The notes beneath the pieces were generated by a model. It was given only the letters and a program-made list of their open reading frames with translations, made no database searches and was not told the DNA's origin. From positions 1-55,875 of the forward strand of contig WFTS01000051.1 of NCBI GenBank assembly GCA_015485385.1: 55,875 nucleotides of DNA, written 5' to 3'. Origin of the DNA: Kordiimonadales bacterium (GTDB lineage: Bacteria > Pseudomonadota > Alphaproteobacteria > Sphingomonadales > Kordiimonadaceae). How positions within the stretch are numbered: position 1 is the stretch's first letter; the number at the start of each line of letters is the position of its first letter. Below are positions 6,071 through 47,036 of the stretch, piece by piece. The position numbers were made by a program, and so were the translations under genes.

Positions 6071-6604
6071 CTAATGATCGGTCGTCAGACTGTCTTCCAG
6101 ACGTTCTGCTTCCCGTTTAGCGCGACGTTCAATATAGGTGCTTAGGAAAATGCCAGATAGTGCAGCTACCATGCCCGCCATAGTCGGAATGGTGGCTTTC
6201 GAAACACCCGCAGCCATGGCGCGGGCGTTCGAACTACCTTGCGATCCCATCACATCAAACACTTCAATCATGCCTGTAACCGTCCCCATAAGGCCGATCA
6301 GGGGGCAAATGGCAACGAGCGTCTTGATCAAATTCACACCCTGAAACAGGTTGTGATTAATCTCTGAAACCATGGCAGCACGAATTTTATGTGCATACCA
6401 AGATTTCCGCTCTGCCCTTGCTTCCCAGGCATCAACCACCCGGTTTTTCTGCTTGCGATATTCAAGCGTGAAAAACCAGAGGCGTTCGATGATAAGAACC
6501 CACATTATGAACGTGACCGCTAGCAGCCCGAAGAGGACGTCGCCGCCCCGCTCCATGAATGCGCGGATCGCGTCAAATGCGTCGTTAAGCGCTAGCATTC
6601 GCAT
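6071..6604 (-). CDS. exbB: ExbB-like MotA/TolQ/ExbB proton channel protein
   Basis: About 177 residues with the ExbB/TolQ plan: an N-terminal helix (about 17-38), a cytoplasmic loop, and two further helices containing LIGLMGTVTGMIEVFD and the AxxxP-type segment ATIPTMAGMVAALSG. It forms the channel core with ExbD. I chose the ATG at 6604 because GAGAAAGAG lies directly upstream; the reading frame stays open further, into the end of the ttpC gene. With this start it overlaps the 3' end of ttpC by 20 nt, a sign of coupling. It is shorter than E. coli ExbB, as usual for the ExbB of TonB2 operons. Confidence 0.94.
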   Translation of the reverse strand: MRMLALNDAFDAIRAFMERGGDVLFGLLAVTFIMWVLIIERLWFFTLEYRKQKNRVVDAWEARAERKSWYAHKIRAAMVSEINHNLFQGVNLIKTLVAICPLIGLMGTVTGMIEVFDVMGSQGSSNARAMAAGVSKATIPTMAGMVAALSGIFLSTYIERRAKREAERLEDSLTTDH

Positions 6605-7949
6605 GCTCTTTCTCTGCGTGCACTGCAATGATGCCGGCAGACTGCTCTTCAAGAACGTGGATCACGCCTTTAGAGGAGCCCGACACAAAGCTGTGTAGGA
6701 ACAGAGTTGGAATTGCGACCACAAGGCCTTCAACTGTCGTCATCAGGGCAGCCGAAATACCACCAGCCATCTTCGCTGGATCGCCCGTACCGAACAAGGT
6801 AATGGCTTGGAAGGTTTCGATCATACCAGTCACTGTACCCAACAGACCCATAAGAGGGGCAACCGCAGAGATCAGCTTGATGATGGTGAGGAAGCGCTCA
6901 AGAGCTGGTGTTTCTTTCAGAATTGCTTCATCCAGTTTCAGCTCAAGTGTTTCAACATCCACAGACTTGTTGTTTTCATAAACAGAAAGTACACGGCCTA
7001 GCGGATTGTTAACATTGGCAGTTTCAGACCGAATCTGCTTTTTCACTTTGCCGCTAACACCCAAGAGGTAAATCCACTGGAAGATCGCCACCAAGACACC
7101 AATAGCACCAAGGCCAAGTGTGATGTAACCAATGGTTCCACCTTGCTCTAGACGTTCCATTTTGGTTGGTTTGTCAACTTCAAGGGAAAGCAATTGCCCA
7201 CGTGTTGGATCAATACCAAGGCGTTGAATGCCACTTGTAGCAGATTCGAAACCAGGAATTGTGCCAGTGTAACGACTAGAAGGCTGACGAATAAGCTCAT
7301 CAACGCTGCCTTCTTTGGTGTTCAGGACATAATATTTGCCTTCACCAACAAGGCCAAAGTCGCCAAGACGGGTTAGGTTGATTTCCTCGGTATTCCCAGC
7401 GACTGTACGAACAGTATGCTTGAAAGTTTTAATCTCACCAGAACCGATCATTTCAAGCATCATCTGAGCAGGCCAAGCCCGAATATCGGCAAGGGTCGGA
7501 AGCTCAGAAGACTCTGATGATTTTTTGATAAGATTGTCGATTTCTGCCATGCGGCCAGGATTGTCGATAGACACATGAGATGTTGAAATCACCGATTTCG
7601 CATCACCAGCAGATTGCTGAAGAACGCCGAAAAGTTCACTTAATTGTCCAAGGCGCTCGCGCTGAACTTCAAGTTGGCGTGTGATCTCAGCTTCATTGTT
7701 GCGACGTGTTTGTTCAAGACGCGCACTTTCACGCTCAAGCCGTTTTTGGGTTTGGCGTTCTTGTTGCAACAAAGATTTTTGCTGGTCACGGCGTTGACGA
7801 AACTCAGCTTCGCGTTTCTTATGCTGTTCTGATTCAGAAGCACGACCATTGCGTACTTTGTTCAACAGATCAGCCATACTGTCTTGTGCTGTTGCTGAGG
7901 CAGAAAAGCCCAGAGCAATCAAAGCGACAGAGGTTATAATCTTTTTCAC
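6585..7949 (-). CDS. ttpC: TtpC-like MotA/TolQ/ExbB proton channel protein with long periplasmic domain
   Basis: A 454-residue protein. It has a signal peptide (1 to about 21), a long charged coiled coil (about 35-110, many R/E/Q), a periplasmic domain, a transmembrane helix at about 270-295, and a C-terminal ExbB/TolQ module with LMGLLGTVTGMIETF. This architecture is that of TtpC, described in Vibrio TonB2 systems as an extra component required for function. The start is GTG with AGGGGGAAAT before it. Only one base separates it from the upstream DUF3450 gene. The large periplasmic part may reach toward TonB or the TPR protein. Assignment rests on domain order plus operon context. Confidence 0.92.
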   Translation of the reverse strand: MKKIITSVALIALGFSASATAQDSMADLLNKVRNGRASESEQHKKREAEFRQRRDQQKSLLQQERQTQKRLERESARLEQTRRNNEAEITRQLEVQRERLGQLSELFGVLQQSAGDAKSVISTSHVSIDNPGRMAEIDNLIKKSSESSELPTLADIRAWPAQMMLEMIGSGEIKTFKHTVRTVAGNTEEINLTRLGDFGLVGEGKYYVLNTKEGSVDELIRQPSSRYTGTIPGFESATSGIQRLGIDPTRGQLLSLEVDKPTKMERLEQGGTIGYITLGLGAIGVLVAIFQWIYLLGVSGKVKKQIRSETANVNNPLGRVLSVYENNKSVDVETLELKLDEAILKETPALERFLTIIKLISAVAPLMGLLGTVTGMIETFQAITLFGTGDPAKMAGGISAALMTTVEGLVVAIPTLFLHSFVSGSSKGVIHVLEEQSAGIIAVHAEKEHANASA

Positions 7950-42361: not shown

Positions 42362-43570
42362 TCATTCTCCAGTTGCCATTTTCTCAGGCTCTAAAGGGTC
42401 GATAAAGATCATCAATAGCAAAACCGGCCATATGATCAAGCATGTTGCAGTGGTAAGCGCTGTTAACCCCAGTTGAATGAACGGTGCGACAAGCGCGGTG
42501 GCTGCGGCGGCAAGTCCGGTGACGGCCATCAGCATTAAGGCCGAGGCGCGATCATCATCGTCGTGTGCGGCTTTCAGGGCTTGCAGAAAGCCGGGGCCGC
42601 CCCTGAGGCCAAGCCCCATATTGAGCACCCAGAATAGATATTTCAGATCAGCCGGGTTACCGCGTCCCCAAAGGGCATATGCGAGCAGCAGCATGGCCCC
42701 GATAGCGGCGACAATATTGCCCGCGTTGATCACATGTTCAGCGCCAAAACGTTTGACAAAATTACCCGAAATATTAGCGGTTAGGATAAAAACAGAAACG
42801 CCGACAATCTGCATGGCGATAAAATCGCTGATTGTGCCGTCCATGGTTTTAATGATCACGGCGGGCGCTGAGAAAACGAAGGTTAATAGCCCGCCAAGGA
42901 CCAAAGCGTGCCCCAGAGAATAGCGAAGATATGTCGCGTTTTTCACTAAATTGATATAGCTCCCGGGCTTCAGATTGGCTTTGGTGCCGATATGAGGAAG
43001 CAGCTTGGGCTTTAAGATCACTGTTAGGCTGACCACACCTACAAGCGCCGCTGTAAGCAAGAAAGAGGCAGTCCAGCCGTACTGGATATGGAGCCATGCT
43101 CCGGCGATAGGGGCAAGGCCCGGCACTAAGGCTTCGATGCTGCCCATGGCGCTCAAGGCCCGGACGGATCCCAATTCAGAAAAGAGATGGCGGATAAGGC
43201 CCGGTGCCAAGACGGCAGATCCTGAGGCAAAAATGCCTTGCAGCAAACGCACACCGATTAAAGTTTCAACCGAAGGGCTATATGCCCCGGCCAATGAGGC
43301 AAGGCCGTATCCGAACAGGGACCCGACAAACAAGCGCCGCCGACCCATGCGCGCCGCCAAGCTGCCAAAGGAGATCAGCCCGATCATATTCCCCGCGACA
43401 AATGCGGCCAACACCAGTTGGGCAGTGGCGGTGGATGTATCAAATATATGCGGAAAATCGGGAACAGACGGCAGCACCAGATCAATCCCCGCCAGCCCCA
43501 TCACTGTACCAGCAACAATGGTCGCAAAGGCGAAAAATACGCGCATTTTTGGGGCCAGACTTTCTTGCAT
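42362..43570 (-). CDS. MFS transporter, Bcr/CflA drug-exporter type
   Basis: 402 residues with 12 predicted transmembrane helices. The loop between helices 2 and 3 has SLAARMGRRRLFVGSL, the MFS motif, and ARLLQG-like RLLQGIFASGSA marks helix 4 of drug/proton antiporters. It ends one base before the transaminase gene and probably shares an operon with it. The exported compound is not predictable. Confidence 0.88.
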   Translation of the reverse strand: MQESLAPKMRVFFAFATIVAGTVMGLAGIDLVLPSVPDFPHIFDTSTATAQLVLAAFVAGNMIGLISFGSLAARMGRRRLFVGSLFGYGLASLAGAYSPSVETLIGVRLLQGIFASGSAVLAPGLIRHLFSELGSVRALSAMGSIEALVPGLAPIAGAWLHIQYGWTASFLLTAALVGVVSLTVILKPKLLPHIGTKANLKPGSYINLVKNATYLRYSLGHALVLGGLLTFVFSAPAVIIKTMDGTISDFIAMQIVGVSVFILTANISGNFVKRFGAEHVINAGNIVAAIGAMLLLAYALWGRGNPADLKYLFWVLNMGLGLRGGPGFLQALKAAHDDDDRASALMLMAVTGLAAAATALVAPFIQLGLTALTTATCLIIWPVLLLMIFIDPLEPEKMATGE

Positions 43571-43708
43571 GCGTCACTCCTGTTCCAGCGCGAGGGGCCT
43601 ACTCACGACGGCATCGTTTATAACAACATTTATTACAAGCACGAAAAAACTTATATTTTATATATCGTTGACAAAACACCAGAAAACAGCAACACAAGAC
43701 CTATCAAT

Positions 43709-43885
43709 ATGCATATGGTCCCGAAAGGGTGCTTGAAAATTTCAGGCAAGGGAAAACGGTTCAATGCCGTTACAGCCCCCGCTACTGTAACTGGGTACGA
43801 AAGAAGCAATTTATGCCACTGGCGTTTGGCTGGGAAGGCTGCTTCATTCGGTTTATCCGGGAGTCAGGATACCTGCTAGATGCAT
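43709..43885 (+). promoter_or_regulatory. Cobalamin (B12) riboswitch
   Basis: The conserved pieces occur in order: AAGGGAA (43748-43754 area), the B12 box GCCCCCGCTACTGTA (43775-43789), GCCACTG (43815-43821), GGGAAGGC (43832-43839) and GAGTCAGGATACCTGC (43861-43876). The closing stem is visible as ATGCAT at 43709-43714 pairing with ATGCAT at 43880-43885. About 140 nt follow before the first gene, with a GGAGAAAGAG ribosome binding site at its end, so translational control is possible. Adenosylcobalamin or a related cobamide should repress the three downstream genes. Confidence 0.93.
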
Positions 43886-44024
43886 TCATATGATTGTTTC
43901 ATCGGGTGGACGTGACACATGCTGCAACGAACGCAAAGCCGTCAGGCTATAAGCGTCTTTTTACGGTATCATACGGTGGAACAATCTTTTTACTGCGCGG
44001 GTTGGCGCAATAAGGAGAAAGAGA

Positions 44025-44615
44025 ATGCGTTCCATATCTAAGACTAACCACTTATTAAACAAAAGATTTCATGTTCGATTTACCGCATTGGTAAGTGTTG
44101 TTCTCGCGGTTGCGTTGCTGCGTTTATTGCCGCACCCCCCTAACTTCACCCCTGTGGGGGCCATCGCTTTGTTCGGAGGGGCTTATTTTAAGCCCAAATA
44201 CTGGGCTTTCCTTGTTCCAATTGCCGCGATGCTTATAAGCGACATTGGTTTGGAGTTGTTGTCAGGGCGCGGCTTGCATGCCTTGATGCCGGTCATTTAC
44301 AGTTTGATTCTTGCGACCGTTGCAATTGGCCTACTGCTGCAGAAAAAAGTAAGTTTCGGGCGGATATGCGGCGCGGCGTTTGGCTCGTCGCTTTTGTTCT
44401 TTGTGGGGTCTAACTTTGCCGTTTGGGTTATGAGCACAAGTTATCCCTCTACAGTGCAGGGACTTTTGGCGTGCTACACGGCGGCAATTCCTTTTTTCCA
44501 GAACACTTTAGGCGGGACACTTTTTTATTCAGCCTTGATGTTTGGAGGCTGGGCTTTGGCAGAGCATAAATTCCCCATTTTGGGCGCGCAAACACCAAAG
44601 GCGCTTGCTGTATAG
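44025..44615 (+). CDS. DUF6580-type membrane protein, B12-regulated
   Basis: 196 residues, about five transmembrane helices, with the family stretch PPNFTPVGAIALFGGAYF. DUF6580 proteins are often found behind cobalamin riboswitches and are suspected substrate-capture subunits or transporters, similar in size to ECF S-components. The gene directly follows the riboswitch, has GGAGAAAGAG before its ATG, and its stop touches the next ATG without a gap. A role in moving cobamides or precursors across the inner membrane is inferred, not shown. Confidence 0.85.
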   Translation: MRSISKTNHLLNKRFHVRFTALVSVVLAVALLRLLPHPPNFTPVGAIALFGGAYFKPKYWAFLVPIAAMLISDIGLELLSGRGLHALMPVIYSLILATVAIGLLLQKKVSFGRICGAAFGSSLLFFVGSNFAVWVMSTSYPSTVQGLLACYTAAIPFFQNTLGGTLFYSALMFGGWALAEHKFPILGAQTPKALAV

Positions 44616-45317
44616 ATGGCGCATATTAAAAAGAAAGCTGTCGTTGCCTGGAGTTCGGGCAAGGACAGCGCCTACGCCTATCATATAGCGCAGCAATCCG
44701 GTGATTATGACATTGTTGGTGTATTAACCACCTTGTCGGAGGGAACACAGAAAGTTGCGGCACATGGGGTGCGAGAAGCGTTTCTTGAACAGCAATATTC
44801 ACGTCTAGGCGTGCCTGCTTATAAGGTATATGTGCCAAGACCATGCTCGAACATAGTGTATGAAAACCGTATGGGCGTGCCCTTGCAGCAGTTAAAATCC
44901 GAGGGTGTAACGCATGTGATTTTCGGAGATTTATTCTTGGATGATATCCGAGCGTTTCGGGAAAATCAGATGCAAAAGCTAGGCTTAAAAAGCGTGTTTC
45001 CTTTGTGGGATATGCCCACACATAGCCTAGCCAAAGACATGATAGCCTCGGGCCTGAAAACTATTTTGGTTTGTGTTTGTGCCGAAAAATTGGGCAAGAG
45101 TTTTGCGGGGCGAGTTTTTGACCGATCCTTATTAGAGGACCTGCCCGCAGATGTGGACCCTTGCGGAGAAAAGGGTGAATTTCATACGGCCGTTATTGCG
45201 GGGCCGATGTTTGAAAATGAAATACCGGTCTCATTCGGGGATGTGAGAGAAGACACTGGGTATTTTTATGCTGACATTTTGCCGCGCTCGTCTGTCGTAG
45301 AGGGCCGGAAAAAATGA
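44616..45317 (+). CDS. DUF71/COG2102 ATP-pyrophosphatase-like protein (B12-associated group)
   Basis: 233 residues of the diphthine-ammonia ligase (Dph6) family. The PP-loop is WSSGKDS (12-18), and a C-terminal DPCGEKGEFHT block marks the family. Dph6 works on eukaryotic and archaeal EF2, which bacteria lack, so another amidation or ligation is expected. Comparative genomics has predicted that a bacterial subgroup of DUF71 acts in B12 salvage; this gene sits in a cobalamin-riboswitch operon, consistent with that. It is flanked with zero gap upstream and a four-base overlap (ATGA) downstream. Confidence 0.88.
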   Translation: MAHIKKKAVVAWSSGKDSAYAYHIAQQSGDYDIVGVLTTLSEGTQKVAAHGVREAFLEQQYSRLGVPAYKVYVPRPCSNIVYENRMGVPLQQLKSEGVTHVIFGDLFLDDIRAFRENQMQKLGLKSVFPLWDMPTHSLAKDMIASGLKTILVCVCAEKLGKSFAGRVFDRSLLEDLPADVDPCGEKGEFHTAVIAGPMFENEIPVSFGDVREDTGYFYADILPRSSVVEGRKK

Positions 45318-46120
45318 AACAACTCGCAGTGCCTGAGGGTCCACGACGAATCGTGTGCTTGACAGAAGAACCAACGGAAATCCTTTATCTACTAGGTGAA
45401 AGTGACCGTATTGTTGGTATCAGTGCCTATACCGAGCGCCCGCCTGAGGCGAAATTGAGCAAACCTATTGTCTCGGCCTTTGTCGGCGGTAGCGTTCAGA
45501 AAATAAAGGCCCTTAAACCCGATTTGATCATAGGGTTTTCTGATGTCCAAGCTATGCTGGCAGGCAAATTAATAAAGGCAAACTTGCCCGTATTAATTTT
45601 CAATCAGCGTAGTGTGCAAGAAATACTCGACGTTATTATGGCAATTGGCTGCCTGGTGCAGCGGCAAGCAGAAGCTACGGCTTTGGTTGCGACCTATATC
45701 AAGCGGATACAGTCTATGCGTTTGAGAAATACACAATTGAAACAGCGCCCTAAGGTCTATTTCGAGGAATGGAACGATCCGATGATCACGGGTATCCAGT
45801 GGGTTAGTGAACTTATTGAAATAGCGGGCGGAGAAGATGTTTTTGCAAGCCAATCTATGGGGCAGGCTTCAAAGGACCGCTTTGTTAGCGTTGAGGACGT
45901 AAGGGCTGCAGAACCAGATATCATGCTGGCATCTTGGTGTGGGAAGCCGTTCGATAGAGACGAGACCTTGCGGCGTTTTAAAGGGCTCTCAATCCCTGCT
46001 CTTGAAGGGGACCGAATTTACGAAGTGCCGTCGTCTATTATCTTGCAACCGGGCCCGGCAAGCTTAACAGCAGGGCTGGATTTTCTGGAAAAAATCATGA
46101 AAGAAGCGTTTGCGGACTAA
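45314..46120 (+). CDS. BtuF-like cobalamin-binding protein lacking a signal peptide
   Basis: 268 residues of the periplasmic-binding-protein class III fold (BtuF/FhuD type): RIVCLTEEPTEILYLLGESD, VGISAYTERPPEAK and IKALKPDLIIGFSD are typical of the N-lobe, and ELIEIAGGEDVF of the C-lobe. The first residues MKQLAVPEGPRR are polar, with no signal peptide, so it seems to act in the cytoplasm. It overlaps the DUF71 gene by four bases. Together with the riboswitch, it should bind a cobamide inside the cell. No BtuC/BtuD genes are in the window. Confidence 0.87.
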   Translation: MKQLAVPEGPRRIVCLTEEPTEILYLLGESDRIVGISAYTERPPEAKLSKPIVSAFVGGSVQKIKALKPDLIIGFSDVQAMLAGKLIKANLPVLIFNQRSVQEILDVIMAIGCLVQRQAEATALVATYIKRIQSMRLRNTQLKQRPKVYFEEWNDPMITGIQWVSELIEIAGGEDVFASQSMGQASKDRFVSVEDVRAAEPDIMLASWCGKPFDRDETLRRFKGLSIPALEGDRIYEVPSSIILQPGPASLTAGLDFLEKIMKEAFAD

Positions 46121-46124
46121 GAGG

Positions 46125-47036
46125 CTAAGCGCTTTTGTTGCTCTGGGTTTTTTCGACAATGCAATCATGAAATTGATGCACCAGCTCGGCGACTGTATCG
46201 GGGGCCTCTACTTGGGGATAGTGGCCAATACCCGGCAGCCGCGCCAGTTTGGCTTTTGGCACCAAATTGGCCCAACCATCCGCAGCGTGGGCTCCGGAGA
46301 CCGGATCCTCAAGGCCGTTGATCAACATCATTGGCATATAAGCGTCTTTTAAGGCCCCAACCCAGCGCGCGGCGTTCTTTTTGCGTTCGCGCATATAGCG
46401 GATGCGCCGAGTGAATGCTCCGCGCCCGTTGATGCCTTTGATTGCAGGCCAAAATTCGGCAAGACGATCGCCGGTTGGGCGGGTGTTTTTCCCAAAAATA
46501 TCGGCGAAGCCTTGCAGGAATTTAGCCTTATTGACAAAGCGTGAGAAAATTGGCCCGAAAGGCCCCGCGAGCAGCTTTTGCGCCGGGCGTGGGCGGTGTA
46601 AATCAGGGATCATGCCACCGTTTAAAAAGACAGATGACAAAATGCGAAACGAAAGCGAGCTTTCATTGTGGCGCGCGATCAGTTCTTGAGCCACGGTATC
46701 GCCGACATCATGCGCAAGGATGTGAACCTCCTTGATGTCGCGGTGGCGCATCAGATCTTCGATCATATCAGCCTGATCCATAATGCTACAGGTTTTCAGC
46801 TTGGCATTTAAAGACTGCCCATAGTCCAAAAGATCAGGCACCACCATATGGAAGCGGCCCACAAGCAATTTTGCAGCCCAGCACCAGTCCCAACCGCTTG
46901 TGGGAAAACCATGCAGCATCAACAGCACTTGGCCTTTTCCGCCCCGTTGGAAAAAGACATTATGGTCCCGCCATTCAAAATATTTGCCGCACTGTTTCCA
47001 TTGCTCAAACGATAGCGGTGCCTTTTGGATGCTCAT
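46125..47036 (-). CDS. Alpha/beta hydrolase with Asp nucleophile (epoxide hydrolase / haloalkane dehalogenase type)
   Basis: 303 residues. The nucleophile elbow is HD110VGDT, meaning an Asp replaces Ser, as in epoxide hydrolases and haloalkane dehalogenases. The oxyanion HGFPTSGWDW segment (42-51) and the His in GIGHYPQVEAP complete the pattern. The substrate is open. The gene is convergent with the BtuF-like gene (4-nt gap) and has no obvious partner. Confidence 0.85.
   Translation of the reverse strand: MSIQKAPLSFEQWKQCGKYFEWRDHNVFFQRGGKGQVLLMLHGFPTSGWDWCWAAKLLVGRFHMVVPDLLDYGQSLNAKLKTCSIMDQADMIEDLMRHRDIKEVHILAHDVGDTVAQELIARHNESSLSFRILSSVFLNGGMIPDLHRPRPAQKLLAGPFGPIFSRFVNKAKFLQGFADIFGKNTRPTGDRLAEFWPAIKGINGRGAFTRRIRYMRERKKNAARWVGALKDAYMPMMLINGLEDPVSGAHAADGWANLVPKAKLARLPGIGHYPQVEAPDTVAELVHQFHDCIVEKTQSNKSA

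What the first reader, a model, noticed from the sequence alone, without database searches (positions are those of the whole stretch)
43709..46120. B12-riboswitch cassette: DUF6580 membrane protein, DUF71 ATP-pyrophosphatase and a cytosolic BtuF-like protein
A complete cobalamin riboswitch controls three genes with gaps of 0 and -4 bases. The membrane protein is a possible uptake component, DUF71 a likely ATP-dependent amide-forming enzyme, and the BtuF-like protein lacks a signal peptide, so it should bind a cobamide in the cytoplasm rather than feed an ABC importer. No btuC/btuD is in the window. A role of DUF71 in B12 salvage has been predicted from comparative genomics, but to my knowledge the reaction and the cytosolic binding protein are not characterised. 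The unit may remodel or re-amidate imported corrinoids.
Basis: partly seen in the sequence, partly recalled or inferred. Interest (0 to 1): 0.82.

Follow-up and report, generated by a model that had tools for sequence, protein, structure and literature searches.

The report
Vitamin B12 uptake-and-capture operon
A B12-sensing RNA switch controls three genes that look like a small B12 membrane importer, an ATP-using enzyme and a B12-binding protein that stays inside the cell, a possible route to import and hold the vitamin beside the usual ABC pump.

Summary
Observation confirmed. A cobalamin riboswitch (RF00174, 105 bits) precedes DUF6580, DUF71 and a BtuF-like protein, with gaps of 0 and -4 bases.

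DUF6580 models (pLDDT 70) as a six-helix S-component; its best solved match is the B12 transporter BtuM, and its only profile match is from the B12 transporter ECF-CbrT, E 0.04. In two reduced genomes without a clear BtuC-type permease it follows a TonB receptor under a B12 riboswitch.

The BtuF-like protein belongs to a widespread family without signal peptides; 30 of 104 distinct loci lie near B12-linked genes or riboswitches (19 counting established B12 genes and riboswitches only).

DUF71 has the known B12-subgroup motif. The genome holds riboswitch-btuB-btuF-btuC-btuD-cobQ elsewhere; CobS was not found and CbiB not above cut-off, so lower-ligand remodelling is unlikely.

Best model: a solitary S-component imports cobamides, the cytosolic BtuF-like protein captures them, DUF71 does ATP-dependent chemistry on them. 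Coupling and reaction are inferred. The full trio was seen only here and in one congener; pairs recur independently.

The parts
43699..43894 (+). Cobalamin riboswitch aptamer (RF00174)
   Evidence: cmscan 105.2 bits, E 2.3e-25, full length 1-189
43892..44016 (+). Predicted expression platform: a long hairpin (43892-43986) and a second one (43987-44016) that pairs most of the Shine-Dalgarno AAGGAG at 44012-44017, suggesting control of translation
   Evidence: strand folding MFE -44.8 kcal/mol, z -2.80; no terminator-like site between riboswitch and first gene in the simple scan. Inference, not tested.
44025..44615 (+). DUF6580 six-helix membrane protein, 196 aa; predicted solitary B12 S-component
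   Evidence: PF20221 194 bits; AlphaFold2 model six helices, pLDDT 69.8, pTM 0.62; Foldseek best hit BtuM 8ovv, prob 1.00, TM 0.62/0.69, E 0.027; profile hit 6fnp E 0.04
44616..45317 (+). DUF71/COG2102 PP-loop ATP-pyrophosphatase of the DUF71-B12 subgroup, 233 aa
   Evidence: PF01902 106.2 bits; motif DPCGEKGEFHT, His where Dph6 has Glu188; 3rjz_A, N-type ATP pyrophosphatase, E 5.1e-14
45314..46120 (+). Signal-less BtuF-like (periplasmic-binding-protein fold) protein, 268 aa; Cys15 and Cys209 invariant in 17 aligned relatives
   Evidence: PF01497 124.4 bits; V. cholerae BtuF 5ysc E 3.4e-15; AlphaFold2 pLDDT 89.1, Foldseek to 5ysc TM 0.72/0.75; alignment A1; signal check

Best explanation
A B12-repressed uptake-and-capture operon. 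When intracellular cobamide is low the riboswitch exposes the Shine-Dalgarno sequence and the three genes are made. DUF6580 is a solitary S-component that carries cobamide across the inner membrane without an ABC module. The BtuF-like protein stays in the cytosol, takes the incoming corrinoid and holds it, with conserved cysteines as possible cobalt ligands or reductants, so that import can go on down a gradient; this would be a binding-protein version of the metabolic trapping proposed for BtuM with BtuR. DUF71-B12 uses ATP on a carboxylate or amide of the corrinoid. It supplements the BtuBFCD system encoded elsewhere in the genome. Shown: the riboswitch, gene order, family assignments, lack of a signal peptide, recurrent genomic linkage to B12 genes, the separate btuBFCD operon. 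Suggested by models: the S-component fold. Inferred: S-component transport, cytosolic capture and its coupling to DUF6580, the DUF71 reaction, translational control.
For: Riboswitch. DUF6580: first PDB fold match is BtuM with hydroxycobalamin; ranks 2-5 are the thiamin S-component, 4huq_S (titled only 'a transporter'), FolT and a chain of ECF-PanT. Only profile hit is a 182-residue chain of 6FNP, which is ECF-CbrT (PMC5997447). DUF6580 follows a TonB receptor under an AdoCbl-II riboswitch in G214 and G488; none of eight reduced DUF6580 genomes has a FecCD match above 30.0 bits, nor CobS or CbiB. BtuF-like family: 41 of 102 loci have 20 codons or fewer between in-frame stop and core, and only 3 of 102 have any clearly hydrophobic stretch upstream. 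22 of 104 loci have a B12-linked gene adjacent and co-directional, 30 of 104 one nearby or a riboswitch. BluB 4 of 4 and CbiB 2 of 2 tested are above NCBIfam cut-offs. Riboswitch nearby in 9 of 27 genomes, window included, against 0.24 expected, P 8.6e-13. Not the BtuCD partner: BtuC in 4 of 104 loci, each with another BtuF; 6 of 27 genomes have no FecCD match above 28.4 bits. DUF6580 pairing needs two changes on the tree. DUF71-B12 motif.
Against: The full trio was seen only in the window and G004. 74 of 104 BtuF-like loci show no B12 link with the queries used, including all 15 of L065-L079, the window protein's closest relatives after G004; 26 of the 104 stretches are under 9 kb. The count of 30 includes two families (MP2, DUF5074) that are B12-linked only by association, and some query genes came from these same loci; with established B12 genes and riboswitches alone it is 19 of 104. 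No random-gene control was run for neighbours, only for riboswitches. The DUF6580 model is of moderate confidence, its Foldseek E-value is 0.027, and the 6FNP hit is not significant. DUF6580 lacks the BtuM loop-3 cysteine. In the 385-genome class sample DUF6580 and the BtuF-like protein coincide only in G000. G488 has a FecCD match of 30.0 bits, just over the cut-off. Neither corrinoid binding nor a partnership of the proteins was testable. EcfT was not searched for.
Confidence: 0.45

Rival explanations
1. The BtuF-like protein is a cytosolic cobamide carrier or chaperone that hands corrinoids to enzymes (adenosyltransferase, CobU, CbiB, CobQ, DUF71), with no coupling to transport; DUF6580 is a co-regulated importer.
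For: Relatives lie beside or near bluB, cobU, cbiB or cobQ with no DUF6580 found in the locus (L049, L087, L089, L096, L102, L129, L133, L136, L140). The family occurs in genomes with and without clear FecCD permeases.
Against: Direct pairing with small membrane proteins behind a riboswitch (L040, L042, L054 with a BtuB between, and the window) suggests a tie to uptake.
Confidence: 0.3
2. One reading: the operon re-amidates or remodels imported corrinoids, with DUF71 as an amide-forming ligase.
For: PP-loop ligase family. CobQ, an amidating enzyme, sits in the btuFCD operon of G000 and G004 although CobS and an above-cut-off CbiB were not found.
Against: Remodelling of the lower ligand needs CbiB and CobS; 13 of 20 DUF71 genomes examined (window's relatives and class) have no CobS match. 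Re-amidation itself was not testable.
Confidence: 0.2
3. DUF71-B12 replaces CbiZ as a pseudo-B12 amidohydrolase, as proposed in PMC3541065, and the other two genes import and present the substrate.
For: Published anticorrelation with CbiZ in bacteria and adjacency to B12 transporter genes or cbiB (passages and section 13 read). Motif match in the window protein.
Against: The product, cobyric acid, needs CbiB and CobS, not found in G000 or G004; an ATP-pyrophosphatase is not needed for hydrolysis (general knowledge). CbiZ was not searched here.
Confidence: 0.1
4. The operon takes up cobalt ions, like CbtJKL of Sinorhizobium meliloti, a BtuF-like system under a cobalamin riboswitch that proved to be a cobalt importer.
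For: Precedent in PMC7689651 (passage read).
Against: The fold of DUF6580 points to B12 S-components; a cytosolic binding protein is not described for CbtJKL in that passage; several neighbours elsewhere are corrinoid enzymes.
Confidence: 0.06

Closest known systems
BtuM (Thiobacillus denitrificans), solitary B12 S-component (PMC6072759)
   Same: Six helices, S-component fold, about 20 kDa, B12-linked gene context; proposed facilitated diffusion with metabolic trapping
   Different: No detectable sequence relation; the BtuM invariant loop-3 Cys is not at that place, DUF6580 has a Cys in 14 of 15 sequences at the start of helix 6; the partner here is a binding protein and not BtuR
ECF-CbrT cobalamin transporter (PMC5997447)
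   Same: Only PDB sequence-profile match of DUF6580, E 0.04
   Different: CbrT needs its ECF module (passage read); no ECF module is in this operon
BtuF, periplasmic partner of BtuCD
   Same: PF01497 fold, B12-linked genomic context
   Different: No signal peptide, no BtuCD beside it, Cys15 and Cys209 invariant in its family alignment; a signal-bearing BtuF exists elsewhere in the genome
DUF71-B12 subgroup of DUF71/COG2102 (PMC3541065)
   Same: PF01902, GExGEFH motif, neighbour of B12 uptake genes
   Different: Occurs here, and in 13 of 20 genomes examined, without a CobS match
CbtJKL cobalt importer of S. meliloti (PMC7689651)
   Same: BtuF-like protein under an adenosylcobalamin riboswitch
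   Different: An ABC importer of cobalt ions

Membership tests
Cobalamin riboswitch RF00174 | Score above the curated gathering cut-off over the whole model | tested here: met
   105.2 against 31.5 bits, positions 1-189
DUF71-B12 subgroup | PF01902 domain with PP-loop | tested here: met
   106.2 bits; WSSGKDS in the sequence
DUF71-B12 subgroup | ENGEFH-type motif, His in place of Dph6 Glu188 | tested here: met
   CGEKGEFHT (motif from PMC3541065)
DUF71-B12 subgroup | Catalytic role in B12 salvage | not testable with these tools
   Predicted in PMC3541065; no assay seen in the listings
Dph6 diphthine-ammonia ligase | EGGE/D-x-E motif and the curated NCBIfam cut-off | tested here: not met
   TIGR03679 78.1 bits, cut-off 197.3; motif differs
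BtuF of BtuCDF | PF01497 periplasmic-binding-protein fold | tested here: met
   124.4 bits; 5ysc TM 0.72/0.75
BtuF of BtuCDF | Export signal | tested here: not met
BtuF of BtuCDF | NCBIfam BtuF equivalog cut-off | tested here: not met
   NF002894 53.9 bits, cut-off 234
BtuF of BtuCDF | Binds B12 | not testable with these tools
   Needs purified protein
BtuM | Six-helix S-component fold | tested here: inconclusive
   Best Foldseek hit 8ovv, prob 1.00, TM 0.62/0.69 but E 0.027, model pLDDT 69.8: likely, not certain
BtuM | Sequence relation to BtuM | tested here: not met
   No phmmer hit at E 10; BtuM not among profile hits
BtuM | Invariant cysteine in loop 3 | tested here: not met
   Conserved Cys150 lies at the start of helix 6 (BtuM Cys80 in L3)
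ECF S-component with ECF module | EcfT and ATPases in the genome | not tested
Cobamide lower-ligand remodelling pathway | CbiB and CobS in the genome | tested here: not met
   G000 and G004: no CobS; CbiB absent in G004 and only 20.4 bits in G000, cut-off 34.4; G000 is 93% complete

The most novel reading that the evidence does not exclude
A new kind of vitamin import: a solitary S-component without any ATPase moves cobamide through the inner membrane, and a solute-binding protein that has moved into the cytosol, perhaps with cysteine ligation of cobalt, pulls the substrate in and holds it. A binding protein would thus work as a cytosolic sink, with DUF71 finishing the cargo.
Probability: 0.3. 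Interest if true: 0.82.

Novelty: new variant of a known kind. Interest (0 to 1): 0.6.

Why it matters
Many B12-dependent Gram-negative bacteria have BtuB but no BtuCDF (stated in PMC6072759, passage read). DUF6580 becomes a concrete candidate for an inner-membrane importer, notably in reduced genomes that have no clear BtuC-type permease match. The operon gives a defined test bed for the open DUF71-B12 question, in a genome where the remodelling answer is unlikely.

Tried and rejected
Missed upstream signal peptide: rejected, only 13 upstream codons in frame. Remodelling through CbiB/CobS: rejected for this genome, with the caveat of 93% completeness; G004, 100% complete, agrees. The BtuF-like protein as BtuCD partner: rejected. 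The second small membrane family (MP2) as a DUF6580 relative: hhalign probability 2.2% and no PDB hit. Viral fold library for DUF6580: nothing at E 0.001. Neighbour clustering by longest ORF was misled by antisense frames in GC-rich genomes and was replaced. Neighbours of the closest non-congener relatives (nine proteins from eight of the 15 loci L065-L079, four more) had no B12 domain; some of these frames may be spurious. Promoter and terminator scans gave no more than the shuffles. Literature: DUF71 and B12, seven papers; DUF6580, none; BtuM, listing; PF20221, none; BtuF combined terms; listings seen; cytosolic/cytoplasmic BtuF, BtuF-like; one paper, not on this; Diphthami_syn_2 with cobalamin, none. 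Passages only were also seen of PMC11109136, PMC8305020 and PMC3621897; they added nothing on this operon. No experimental work on DUF71-B12 was seen in these listings; most subscription journals are not held.
Full report
What is there. The window holds one Rfam match at gathering score, a full-length cobalamin riboswitch at 43699-43894 (105.2 bits), followed by DUF6580 (44025-44615), DUF71 (44616-45317) and a BtuF-like protein (45314-46120), all above their Pfam cut-offs. Downstream of the aptamer the RNA is predicted to fold into two hairpins, the second of which covers most of the Shine-Dalgarno sequence of DUF6580, while the simple scan shows no terminator-like site between riboswitch and gene; I infer control of translation. 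The flanking genes are an MFS transporter on the other strand (42362-43570) and an alpha/beta hydrolase on the other strand (46125-47036).

The rest of the genome. The genome carries a second cobalamin riboswitch, which leads btuB, a signal-bearing btuF, btuC, btuD and cobQ; CobQ scores 610 bits against a cut-off of 273. The congener G004 has the trio behind a riboswitch of 112.3 bits, riboswitch-btuF-btuC-btuD-cobQ on another contig and riboswitch-btuB followed by an adenosyltransferase-like frame on a third (that last name rests on my reading of the sequence). Neither genome gave a CobS match, and CbiB gave nothing in G004 and 20.4 bits in G000, under the cut-off of 34.4. So the trio is not the only B12 importer, and lower-ligand remodelling is unlikely.

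DUF6580. With an alignment of eight sequences AlphaFold2 gave six helices, mean pLDDT 69.8, pTM 0.62. The best PDB match is BtuM with hydroxycobalamin (8ovv: probability 1.00, TM 0.62/0.69, E 0.027); the next four are the thiamin S-component, 4huq_S (titled only 'a transporter'), FolT and chain C of ECF-PanT. A 15-sequence profile had one PDB match, a 182-residue chain of 6fnp, E 0.04, an entry that PMC5997447 gives as ECF-CbrT, the cobalamin ECF transporter (passages read); that the chain is CbrT itself is my inference from its length. Each hit is weak alone; their agreement on cobalamin S-components is the argument. In the class sample PF20221 occurs in 10 of 385 genomes: G000, eight reduced genomes of 0.8-1.7 Mb (71-100% complete) and one weak hit under the cut-off (G164). 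None of the eight has CobS or CbiB, and none has a FecCD match above 30.0 bits (G488, just over the cut-off of 26.5), while the clear best matches in the other genomes of that search are 250-318 bits. In G214 and G488 the order is AdoCbl-II riboswitch, TonB receptor, DUF6580. In G139 a BtuB-like receptor is convergent with DUF6580, with a partial cobalamin riboswitch upstream of the receptor; in G270 and G445 the convergent neighbour looks like a TonB receptor by my reading of the sequence. Of the other three, G170 (10 kb read) and G384 (3.4 kb read) showed no TonB receptor to the eye, and G289 was not read.

The BtuF-like family. In the class sample 26 of 385 genomes, the window's included, have a relative; the search asked for E 1e-20, and the weakest best match is 3.7e-68, so the family is discrete. 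The class is Alphaproteobacteria by inference: three of its loci are identical over the compared 180 residues to named alphaproteobacterial contigs. All 26 carry RF00174, against 259 of all 385 (stricter filters). Six of the 27 genomes (26 plus G004) have no FecCD match above 28.4 bits. DUF71 (18 of 385, two of them weak) and the BtuF-like gene share G000, G225, G449 and G486, but are adjacent only in G000 and G225; DUF6580 and the BtuF-like gene share only G000. I had 107 loci, 104 distinct. Signal: with the last ATG or GTG before the core as start, the highest N-terminal hydrophobicity among 102 proteins is 1.51, against 2.57, 2.48, 1.88 and 3.22 for four periplasmic BtuFs. That choice of start favours short N-termini, so I also measured without a start: 41 of 102 loci have 20 codons or fewer between the in-frame stop and the core, and 3 of 102 (L113, L118, L142; 1.87-1.95) have a stretch of 1.8 or more anywhere in up to 60 upstream codons. 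Cys15 and Cys209 are invariant in the 17-sequence alignment.

Neighbours of that family. 22 of 104 loci have a B12-linked gene within 100 bases on the same strand, and 30 of 104 have one within 6 kb or a riboswitch in the stretch. Without the second small membrane family (MP2) and DUF5074, which are B12-linked by association only, these are 18 and 28; with riboswitches and established B12 genes alone, 19 of 104. The neighbours include DUF6580 (seven loci including G004), DUF71 (five including G004), BluB, CobU, BtuB and CobQ (seven loci). In 9 of 27 genomes (8 of 26 without the window's) a riboswitch lies within about 7 kb, 0.24 expected, P 8.6e-13; counting only six genera, P is 1.0e-7. BtuC appears in 4 of 104 loci: in L047 and L052 with its own BtuF on the opposite strand to the BtuF-like gene, and in L124 and L143 just before a signal-bearing BtuF that is followed by the signal-less protein. 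Against: 74 of 104 loci showed no link with the queries used, among them all 15 of L065-L079; 26 of the 104 stretches are under 9 kb, so some links may be missed.

Tree. A maximum-likelihood tree of 104 proteins puts the window and G004 together, within a group of relatives without B12 neighbours from Planctomycetota, Myxococcota and others, far from the Rhizobiales that pair with DUF6580. The labels DUF6580 and DUF71 each need two changes, both forced by well-supported branches, MP2 three (two forced), BluB/CobU two (one forced). The links to B12 genes were thus formed several times.

DUF71. The window protein has CGEKGEFHT, the B12-subgroup motif described in PMC3541065 (section 13 read). 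The same type of motif is in all 16 good class loci, the window's included (L155-L170). Of 20 DUF71 genomes examined (15 from the class sample, two weak hits dropped, and five relatives including the window's), 7 have CobS above cut-off, three of these at 44-100 bits, and 13 do not. That paper linked the subgroup to pseudo-B12 salvage through CbiB and CbiZ patterns; in this sample the protein often stands without a lower-ligand assembly pathway. Its reaction remains open; an ATP-dependent step on corrinoid carboxylates or amides is inferred from the PP-loop family.

Mechanism. BtuM is thought to work by facilitated diffusion with BtuR as a metabolic trap (PMC6072759, passages and section 7 read). 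I propose that here the cytosolic BtuF-like protein plays the part of the trap and DUF71 processes the cargo. The transport and the capture are testable in laboratory E. coli. Competing readings are a carrier role without transport coupling, re-amidation, a CbiZ-like activity, and cobalt uptake as in CbtJKL (PMC7689651, passage read).

Verdict. The remodelling part does not fit this genome. DUF71-B12 and B12 riboswitches are known; the combination, the B12 S-component assignment for DUF6580 and the breadth of the signal-less family are what is new, as far as the literature searches listed could show.

Noticed in passing
L177 6552-8009 (own genome contig C44) and L178 8473-10110 (G004): Cobyric acid synthase CobQ sits in the riboswitch-btu(B)FCD operon of two genomes in which CobS was not found and CbiB was not found above its cut-off; its use there is unclear and could be re-amidation of salvaged corrinoids.
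   Followed up: partly
L042 7798-8478, L040 about 6486-7057, L054 6470-7000, L099 5465-5986, L041 10627-11199, L105 2380-2967: A second small membrane protein family with no Pfam match in the three members scanned (L042, L054, L099) and an invariant A-C-A-x-P motif in six aligned sequences; in L040, L042 and L054 it lies in a riboswitch-led unit directly before the BtuF-like gene. A possible further B12 inner-membrane transporter.
   Followed up: partly
L181 2135-4718 and L186 2003-4582: In two reduced genomes (G488, G214) an AdoCbl-II riboswitch, a TonB receptor and DUF6580 form one unit, next to an rRNA operon on the other strand.
   Followed up: yes
L143 4049-6774 and L124 2-2860: BtuC, a signal-bearing BtuF and the signal-less BtuF-like gene lie side by side, a natural comparison of the two forms.
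   Followed up: partly
L120 828-3364 and L125 3078-7483: A DUF5074 beta-propeller protein precedes the BtuF-like gene and DUF71 (in L125 behind a BtuB-like receptor), reminiscent of Bacteroides BtuG (recalled, not tested).
   Followed up: no
L062, L063, L064: DUF71 genes with the B12 motif in a congener and two members of the same order stand without DUF6580 or the close BtuF-like family beside them; L064 has a frame with a distant BtuF-like match about 1.4 kb away.
   Followed up: partly
L065-L079: The closest relatives of the window's BtuF-like protein outside its genus, in Planctomycetota, Myxococcota, marine archaea and others, have no B12 link with the queries used.
   Followed up: partly
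L144 5224-5991: A TauE/SafE-type membrane protein lies directly before the BtuF-like gene in a SAR116 genome.
   Followed up: no
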